Positions 35,936 to 37,060 of a stretch of 45,916 bases of DNA are shown one piece after another. A program made the position numbers and the translations under genes. Within the stretch, counting starts at the first letter, position 1; each line of letters opens with the position of its first letter. The notes under the pieces were generated by a model. It saw only the letters and a program-made list of their open reading frames with translations. It made no database searches and had not been told where the DNA came from. Source of the DNA: Chloroflexota bacterium (GTDB taxonomy: Bacteria > Chloroflexota > Dehalococcoidia > SM23-28-2 > RBG-16-64-32); contig JACZRQ010000007.1 of NCBI GenBank assembly GCA_022574655.1, positions 1,737 to 47,652 on the forward strand. Reading direction: 5' to 3'.

Positions 35936-36595
35936 GTGAGTCGCATCAATCTATACGCGGACGAATCAGGCAACTTCGATTGGTCGCATCCGCCTAAGGG
36001 AAGTAGATACTTCATCCTCACGACTATCGCTGTCCATGACAGTCATGAGATCGCCCATGACCTATTGGCTCTTCGGCGACGTTTAGCTTGGGATGGTGTG
36101 GACATCGATCGAGCGTTTCACGCAACCGAAGACACTCAGGCAATTCGTGACGAGGTGTTTCGGGTAATCACGGGCCATGATCTGAGAGTCGATGCGACGA
36201 TCTTGGAGAAAGCCAAGGCCGAACCGCGCCTCAGATCGAGTCCTGAACGGTTCTACCAGTACGCTTGGTATTACCACATGAAACATATCGTGCCAGTCGT
36301 CTCGCAGAGTGGTGATGACCTCTTTGTTGTAGCTGCTTCAGTGGGGACGAAGAAGAAGAGGGAAGCGTTTTACGAAGGTGTGAGGAACGTTATGGAACAG
36401 GTGGCCGGCGACCGAACGATTCGGACAGCTTGCTGGCCGGCCGCGATCGACCCCTGCCTGCAAGTCGCAGACTATTGCTCTTGGGCTATCCAAAGACAGT
36501 TGGAGAGCGCGGATGACCGCTCGTTCGTTCTAATCAAGCCATACGTCAAGACGATGTTCGAATTGTTCAAGTCTGGCTCGACCTACTACTACTAA
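35936..36595 (+). CDS. DUF3800 domain-containing protein
   Basis: INLYADESGNFDWSHPPKGSRYFILTTIAV ... CLQVADYCSWAIQRQLESADDRSFVLIKPYVKT: N-terminal DESG and C-terminal QVADYCSWAIQR motifs of DUF3800; GTG start. Confidence 0.9.
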   Translation: MSRINLYADESGNFDWSHPPKGSRYFILTTIAVHDSHEIAHDLLALRRRLAWDGVDIDRAFHATEDTQAIRDEVFRVITGHDLRVDATILEKAKAEPRLRSSPERFYQYAWYYHMKHIVPVVSQSGDDLFVVAASVGTKKKREAFYEGVRNVMEQVAGDRTIRTACWPAAIDPCLQVADYCSWAIQRQLESADDRSFVLIKPYVKTMFELFKSGSTYYY

Positions 36596-36712
36596 AAGAA
36601 AAACGGGCCAGCTACCCTTGCGGGAGAGCCCGGGGGCTCTTATCACTGACCCCTAAAACGCACCTCTATCGTACACGTTCTGTATACGATAGTCCACGTC
36701 GGGATGTCAGTG
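36594..36712 (-). ncRNA. candidate structured RNA next to DUF3800 (nested stems, GNRA-capped hairpin, GC stem + TTTTTCTTTT)
   Basis: Minus strand: CACTGACatCCC...GGGGTCAGTG outer stem; CTATCGTATAC-agaac-GTGTACGATAG (11 bp with one U-G wobble); CCC-GCAA-GGG; CGGGC...GCCCG then TTTTTCTTTT. Confidence 0.65.
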
Positions 36713-36733
36713 GGATTTTATCCTCGTCGAACG

Positions 36734-37060
36734 CTAAGGCTCGTCGTCGCCGTCGAACTCGTCGCCGGCGACTTTGCCGAAGTCCTCGTCCGACAGGACC
36801 ACTGACTCGCGGCCGATCCACACCGTGATTACGAAGTCTTCGCGGAAAGGGTCGTTTGAGACGACGAGTCGCTCATCCACCTCGCTGATCAGCTCTTTCA
36901 CGTCGTCTTCGCTCAATCGCTCGATGACGCAGAGCGTCCCGTAGCTGACCTCGGGCGTGAAGTGCAGGTCGATCCGCCCAACCTCCTCGTCATCGAGTTC
37001 AACGATGTACGACTCGGAGTTCTCCGTGCGGCACTCTCGTTCGAACGTATATCCACTCAT
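36734..37060 (-). CDS. hypothetical acidic protein (108 aa)
   Basis: MSGYTFERECRTENSESYIVELDDEEVGRIDLHFTPEVSYGTLCVIERLSEDDVKELISEVDERLV...; ends just upstream of the structured RNA. Confidence 0.65.
   Translation of the reverse strand: MSGYTFERECRTENSESYIVELDDEEVGRIDLHFTPEVSYGTLCVIERLSEDDVKELISEVDERLVVSNDPFREDFVITVWIGRESVVLSDEDFGKVAGDEFDGDDEP

What the first reader, a model, noticed from the sequence alone, without database searches (positions are those of the whole stretch)
35936..36712. DUF3800 gene converging on a candidate structured ncRNA
Seen: the 3' flank of the DUF3800 gene holds nested inverted repeats that fit transcription on the MINUS strand best. (a) Outer stem CACTGAC(at)CCC / GGGGTCAGTG. 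(b) Short ACG/CGT helix. (c) 11-bp inner stem CTATCGTATAC-agaac-GTGTACGATAG, whose one non-Watson-Crick pair is U-G on the minus strand but C-A on the plus strand. (d) CCC-GCAA-GGG, a GNRA-capped hairpin inside CGGGC...GCCCG. (e) TTTTTCTTTT immediately after, ending at the DUF3800 stop codon. Knowledge (from memory): comparative genomics has described several conserved RNA motifs named after neighbouring DUF3800 genes (DUF3800-I and onward), with function unknown. Inference: this is a DUF3800 protein/RNA pair, either a member of those motifs or a new one. DUF3800 proteins are predicted nuclease-like, so an RNA partner or substrate is plausible but unproven.
Basis: partly seen in the sequence, partly recalled or inferred. 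Interest (0 to 1): 0.82.

Follow-up and report, generated by a model that had tools for sequence, protein, structure and literature searches.

The report
DUF3800 nuclease with dedicated small RNA
Next to a nuclease-like gene of unknown function (DUF3800) lies a gene for a small structured RNA, on the opposite strand, which occurs beside this gene in many bacterial phyla and almost nowhere else, so the pair looks like a mobile two-part nuclease/RNA module that Rfam does not model yet.

Summary
Related sequences define a ~48-nt RNA (minus strand, 36652→36605): a three-way junction (P1, P2, GNRA-capped P3, conserved UAG) ending in a U-tract at the DUF3800 stop. Among 83 distinct copies, 94% of pair cells are standard and 17 of 18 pairs change on both sides (0/500 shuffles). 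The same RNA, convergent in the same way, sits just 3' of essentially every relative of this DUF3800 in about nine phyla, on plasmids and in a Gordonia phage. In three cyanobacterial-lineage loci it lies 5' of the gene, same strand. A sigma70-like promoter precedes it. In 25 genomes all 26 hits were at DUF3800. Rfam does not recognise it; DUF3800-IX has the same architecture, so this is an unmodelled sister. The protein model resembles RNase HII. Relatives have the empty site, so the cassette was gained. Most likely it is a nuclease-RNA module in which the RNA restrains the nuclease; that step is inferred. Novelty: new variant of a known kind.

The parts
35936..36595 (+). DUF3800 protein gene, 219 aa, predicted RNase HII-like nuclease; residues near-invariant across relatives: D9 E10 G12 H62 R71 K92 D179 Y180
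   Evidence: PF12686; conservation; AF2 pLDDT 84, Foldseek RNase HII 1eke E 1.5e-7
36605..36652 (-). conserved three-way-junction RNA element (48 nt), R1 61.8 bits, R2 57.8 bits
36646..36652 (-). P1 5' arm GGGUCAG
   Evidence: covarying helix
36605..36611 (-). P1 3' arm CUGGCCC
   Evidence: covarying helix
36625..36640 (-). P2 hairpin AGAGCC-CCCG-GGCUCU
36615..36624 (-). P3 hairpin CCC-GCAA-GGG (GNRA cap)
36612..36614 (-). conserved junction UAG before the P1 3' arm
   Evidence: alignments A2 and A6; shared with DUF3800-IX consensus
36594..36603 (-). U-tract TTTTTCTTTT after P1 (terminator-like), overlapping the DUF3800 stop codon
   Evidence: sequence; T enrichment across loci
36668..36673 (-). 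candidate -10 TACGAT at the family's usual distance from P1 (15 nt); start predicted near 36661
   Evidence: family promoter geometry; position
36691..36696 (-). candidate -35 TGGACT, 17-nt spacer
   Evidence: geometry; position. The alternative pair CTGACA (36705-36710), 18 nt, TATACA (36681-36686) scored higher in the naive scan
   Evidence: z -5.3; no other copy in own genome; not found in the 3' flanks of relatives

Best explanation
This is a compact, mobile two-gene module: an RNase HII-like DUF3800 nuclease plus a dedicated ~65-nt trans-acting RNA made from its own promoter on the opposite strand and ended by a U-tract. Shown here by comparison of sequences: the conserved fold, its strand, a promoter signal, near-exclusive pairing with DUF3800 across phyla, and cassette insertion into a core locus. 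Inferred: the RNA folds into its three-way junction, binds its DUF3800 partner through the conserved junction (GANAAG and UAG) and holds the nuclease inactive, as an RNA antitoxin would. Phage infection, or loss of the RNA, would release nuclease activity. Confidence that it is a dedicated RNA partner: about 0.9. That the RNA inhibits rather than activates: about 0.5.
For: Covariation: 94.0% of pair cells standard against 72.6% in shuffles; 17/18 pairs with two-sided changes; slides by one column fall to about 50%. P1 is 100% paired on a structure-blind MAFFT alignment. Strand: 75 G-U cells against 10 that would be G-U on the other strand; GNRA in 20/41 four-nt loops against 3/41; U-tract 4.2 T in 10 nt against 1.9. 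Promoter: mean score 8.2 against 4.3 shuffled and 4.3 on the opposite strand, -10 mostly 12-17 nt before P1, 17-nt spacer commonest. Pairing: at 75 of 79 evaluable genome contigs relatives at E<=0.01, the other 4 with marginal hits in the right place; 26/26 hits in 25 genomes at DUF3800; 14/16 in 396 class genomes. In L053, L064 and L077 the RNA lies 5' of the gene on the same strand. RNA and protein distances correlate, Mantel r 0.47, 0/2000. Insertion: relatives have proA-p108 abutting cation efflux (gaps 13, -4, 65 bp) where the window carries 871 bp. Prophage, phage and plasmid copies with the RNA. For inhibition: the closest PADLOC model is DUF3800_VII; tandem RNA copies at several loci; the Gordonia phage copy lies directly downstream of the immunity repressor.
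Against: No transcript or binding data. The window's own promoter match is weak, and an alternative overlaps it. Inhibition is not distinguished from activation by any computation here. Two orphan RNAs without a detected DUF3800 exist in the class (L131, L134), which fits either gene loss or a role beyond DUF3800.
Confidence: 0.5

Rival explanations
1. The RNA is a required cofactor that activates or positions the DUF3800 nuclease, for example an RNP effector that recognises foreign nucleic acid.
For: Obligate pairing and co-divergence; DUF3800 proteins accompany Cas12a2 and type VI-F CRISPR loci as suspected accessory nucleases (PMC10910872; PMC12669027).
Against: The RNA is almost wholly base-paired, with no constant-length unpaired variable segment that could be a guide. 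Architecture alone cannot exclude activation without a guide.
Confidence: 0.3
2. The element acts as DNA: a recombination or transposition site that mobilises the cassette.
For: The cassette is a clean insertion, and the module is patchy in the class (28/396 genomes).
Against: The element is at one side of the cassette and is not repeated at the other end. G-U pairing, GNRA loops, promoter and U-tract all favour RNA on one strand. Usually a single copy per genome.
Confidence: 0.06
3. It is an ordinary terminator or 3' UTR hairpin shared by two convergent genes.
For: Position between convergent genes and a U-tract.
Against: Conserved sequence in junctions, own promoter signal, conserved across phyla whatever the neighbouring gene, and found 5' of DUF3800 in cyanobacterial-lineage loci.
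Confidence: 0.03
4. It is an antisense RNA that silences DUF3800 mRNA from its 3' end.
For: Convergent layout, with the U-tract overlapping the DUF3800 stop codon.
Against: Almost no overlap with the coding region; fold rather than complementarity is conserved; three loci have it 5' and on the same strand, so not antisense.
Confidence: 0.06

Closest known systems
DUF3800-IX RNA (Rfam RF02968)
   Same: Three-way junction of P1, P2 and P3, UAGG at the foot of P1, U-tract, convergent just 3' of a DUF3800 gene
   Different: Conserved P2 and junction differ (CCGAACUGUC... against YGANAAGAGCC); the window scores nothing at E<=10; my model R2 does not hit the RF02968 loci L110, L111 or L113. L102 and L103 match both (RF02968 below its gathering score) and bridge them.
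DUF3800-III and DUF3800-V RNAs (RF02962, RF02964)
   Same: Convergent sRNA beside a DUF3800 gene (L112 and L109)
   Different: Different, longer structures
Type III toxin-antitoxin systems (from memory)
   Same: Nuclease paired with its own structured RNA from a compact locus
   Different: RNase HII-like fold, not the ToxN type; no RNA repeat array; RNA usually convergent 3' of the gene
Retron type VII, RT plus DUF3800 (PADLOC DUF3800_VII; retron assignment from memory)
   Same: DUF3800 effector paired with an ncRNA
   Different: No reverse transcriptase among the neighbours examined

Membership tests
Rfam DUF3800-IX (RF02968) | score at or above the gathering score 36.8 bits | tested here: not met
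   no match at E<=10 in window 36400-36900
Rfam DUF3800-IX (RF02968) | three-way junction with UAG at P1 foot and terminal U-tract | tested here: met
Rfam DUF3800-IX (RF02968) | conserved P2 and junction sequence CCGAAcuGUC | tested here: not met
   window and relatives have YGANAAGAGCC instead
DUF3800-associated RNA motifs as a kind | conserved covarying structure consistently next to DUF3800 genes | tested here: met
DUF3800-associated RNA motifs as a kind | not identical with a published motif that is absent from Rfam | tested here: inconclusive
   I, II, III, V and IX identified in Rfam by name; the source paper is not held
DUF3800 protein family PF12686 | score over curated cut-off 21 | tested here: met
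   31.8 bits, positions 1-148 of 149
RNase HII fold | RNase H fold with DE-x-G motif | tested here: met
   Foldseek 1eke E 1.5e-7, TM 0.56; D9 E10 G12 conserved at 0.97-0.99; activity not tested
Type III toxin-antitoxin | RNA neutralises the toxin in vivo | not testable with these tools
   needs experiment
RNA-guided nuclease (OMEGA/TnpB-like) | RNA with a variable guide segment | tested here: not met
   no unpaired variable segment of constant length; RNA ends at U-tract
Retron type VII | reverse transcriptase in the same locus | tested here: not met
   neighbours are cation efflux, p108 and proA

The most novel reading that the evidence does not exclude
A widespread, so far unmodelled class of minimal immunity modules: one RNase HII-like nuclease and one ~65-nt RNA that controls it, carried as a mobile cassette in about nine phyla, prophages and plasmids, and sharing ancestry with DUF3800-IX.
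Probability: 0.4. Interest if true: 0.85.

Novelty: new variant of a known kind. Interest (0 to 1): 0.63.

Why it matters
DUF3800 proteins and their RNAs have been known for years as a conserved pairing of unknown function. This variant is small and cleanly laid out (own promoter signal, U-tract, usually one copy, fixed partner), occurs in culturable bacteria and a laboratory phage, and now has a covariance model and a predicted nuclease fold. The open question of what DUF3800 RNAs do becomes directly testable with a two-gene clone.

Tried and rejected
Rfam at gathering and at relaxed thresholds on the window and relatives: no model fits. DUF3800-I and DUF3800-II models searched directly: nothing. 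Single-protein scans of genome and viral contigs found no relatives; the alignment A1 was needed. Sequence search of solved structures: no hit; NCBIfam: none; PHROGs: an unknown family. MAFFT alignments misplace P2 and P3 when loop lengths differ, so the structure count rests mainly on CM-fitted alignments, with one structure-blind check of P1. The idea that palindromes over the promoter are a general operator: 17.7% of RNA promoter regions against 6-8% in controls, p 0.04 against random windows, too weak to claim. The MFE fold of the whole flank prefers the palindrome and hides the conserved fold; it was rejected on covariation. The guide-RNA reading was rejected for lack of a variable unpaired segment.

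Full report
WHAT IS THERE. The window carries a DUF3800 gene at 35936-36595 on the plus strand (PF12686, 31.8 bits), between a cation efflux gene and a 108-aa gene followed by proA (named from its sequence; Pfam Aldedh). The minus strand of 36590-36725 folds better than its shuffles (z -3.9) and better than the plus strand (z -2.4). No Rfam family gives a meaningful match, even at E<=10.

CONSERVATION DECIDES THE STRUCTURE. A DNA search of 60 related genomes found one partial match, and it lay directly 3' of a DUF3800 gene. An alignment of five such proteins then brought in 80 loci from the GTDB species set, others from the class, and 9 viral contigs. Printing the 3' flanks showed one shared element. 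A covariance model from 8 copies (R1), searched over 735 kb, gave 90 matches, nearly all at the DUF3800 3' flank and on the opposite strand. A second model from 80 copies (R2) recovered most of the rest. Counting both, 75 of 79 evaluable loci have it at E<=0.01, and the other four have marginal hits (E 0.06-0.17) in the right place; the 80th contig ends at the gene.

The fold is a three-way junction: P1 (7-8 bp), P2 (AGAGCC/GGCUCU), P3 (variable, often GNRA-capped), and UAG before the P1 3' arm. On 83 distinct rows 94.0% of pair cells are standard, 17 of 18 pairs change on both sides, and no shuffle of 500 reaches this; sliding by one column nearly halves the pairing. That alignment was fitted to the model and holds three weak opposite-strand rows. 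As a check, P1 on a plain MAFFT alignment of 20 copies is 100% paired, against 69% in shuffles. RNAalifold on A6 predicts the same helices. The window RNA taken alone (36594-36661) also folds this way.

GGGGTCAGTG belongs to P1 and GGGCTCT to P2. The 11-bp inner stem and the outer stem form a strong palindrome (36644-36712, z -5.3) with no second copy in the genome and no counterpart in the relatives' flanks. It covers the predicted promoter. It could be an operator, or a hairpin that would compete with P1 in read-through transcripts; I cannot tell. Palindromes there are only modestly enriched in general.

STRAND AND TRANSCRIPTION. G-U pairs: 75 on the strand opposite DUF3800 against 10 that would be G-U on the other; the CM favours its own strand somewhat. 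GNRA loops: 20 of 41 against 3. The ten bases after P1 average 4.2 T, against 1.9 on the other side. Upstream of P1 a sigma70-like promoter score averages 8.2, against 4.3 in shuffles and 4.3 on the opposite strand, with a 17-nt spacer in 44 of 79 and the -10 usually 12-17 nt from P1. In the window the geometry picks TGGACT-17-TACGAT, a weak match; CTGACA-18-TATACA is an alternative. In three cyanobacterial-lineage loci (L053, L064, L077) the RNA lies 5' of DUF3800 on the same strand, followed by a U-rich tract. This speaks against a mere shared terminator or antisense role.

SPECIFICITY. In 25 whole genomes (about 113 Mb; 24 chosen because they carry such loci, plus the window's own), R2 gave 26 hits in 24 genomes, and every one coincides by coordinates with the DUF3800 locus. 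In 396 genomes of the class, 14 of 16 R1 hits are at DUF3800; two are orphans (L131, L134). RNA and protein distances correlate (Mantel r 0.47, 0/2000). The RNA is also found beside DUF3800 in Gordonia phage Kenna, where the gene lies directly downstream of the immunity repressor, and on Phaeobacter and Ruegeria plasmids.

PROTEIN AND MOBILITY. AlphaFold2 gives pLDDT 84 and pTM 0.85; the best solved match is RNase HII (E 1.5e-7, TM 0.56). D9, E10, G12, H62, R71, K92, D179 and Y180 are near-invariant; DE-x-G resembles the RNase HII active-site motif (from memory). Genomes of the same family and order lack the module: in three of them the flanking convergent genes abut (gaps 13, -4 and 65 bp), whereas the window has 871 bp there. 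The simplest reading is that the module was inserted.

RELATION TO KNOWN RNAs. Distant DUF3800 loci in the same class carry Rfam DUF3800-IX, -III and -V RNAs, likewise convergent. DUF3800-IX shares the three-way junction, UAG and U-tract, but R2 does not hit those loci and RF02968 does not hit the window. L102 and L103 match both. I therefore call it an unmodelled sister of DUF3800-IX. The defining paper is not held, so a published but unmodelled motif cannot be excluded.

MECHANISM. A dedicated RNA partner of a predicted nuclease is close to shown by comparative evidence. What the RNA does is inferred. I favour restraint of the nuclease, because DUF3800 is the closest PADLOC defence-model match (DUF3800_VII), the module is patchy and mobile, and RNA copies are sometimes tandem. 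Activation remains a serious rival, since DUF3800 accompanies some CRISPR effectors (PMC10910872; PMC12669027).

Noticed in passing
L107 and L108, just 3' of distant DUF3800-like genes: A different shared structured element (CCCCGTGGACCCGAGTGGTTACGGGAGGCT...GCACGGGG, DUF3800 strand) with no Rfam match, possibly another DUF3800 RNA type.
   Followed up: no
L131 and L134, 1501-1554: Orphan copies of the RNA without a detected DUF3800 gene, in genera where other genomes have the pair.
   Followed up: partly
L031, L028, L057, L100, L114: Two tandem copies of the RNA beside one DUF3800 gene.
   Followed up: partly
L165 (Gordonia phage Kenna), 2375-3185: DUF3800 gene 54 directly downstream of the immunity repressor, in the repressor-to-integrase stretch, with the RNA element directly 3' of it.
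   Followed up: partly
window 36734-37060: 108-aa gene with no Pfam match, next to proA, conserved in 27 of 31 related genomes.
   Followed up: partly
alphaproteobacterial loci such as L079, L080, L058: The RNA has an extra outer stem (GTGGCCC/GGACCAC type) and often a further hairpin outside P1.
   Followed up: no
L166 5299-5376: Subthreshold Rfam istR match (32.9 bits, gathering 45) on the Phaeobacter plasmid.
   Followed up: no
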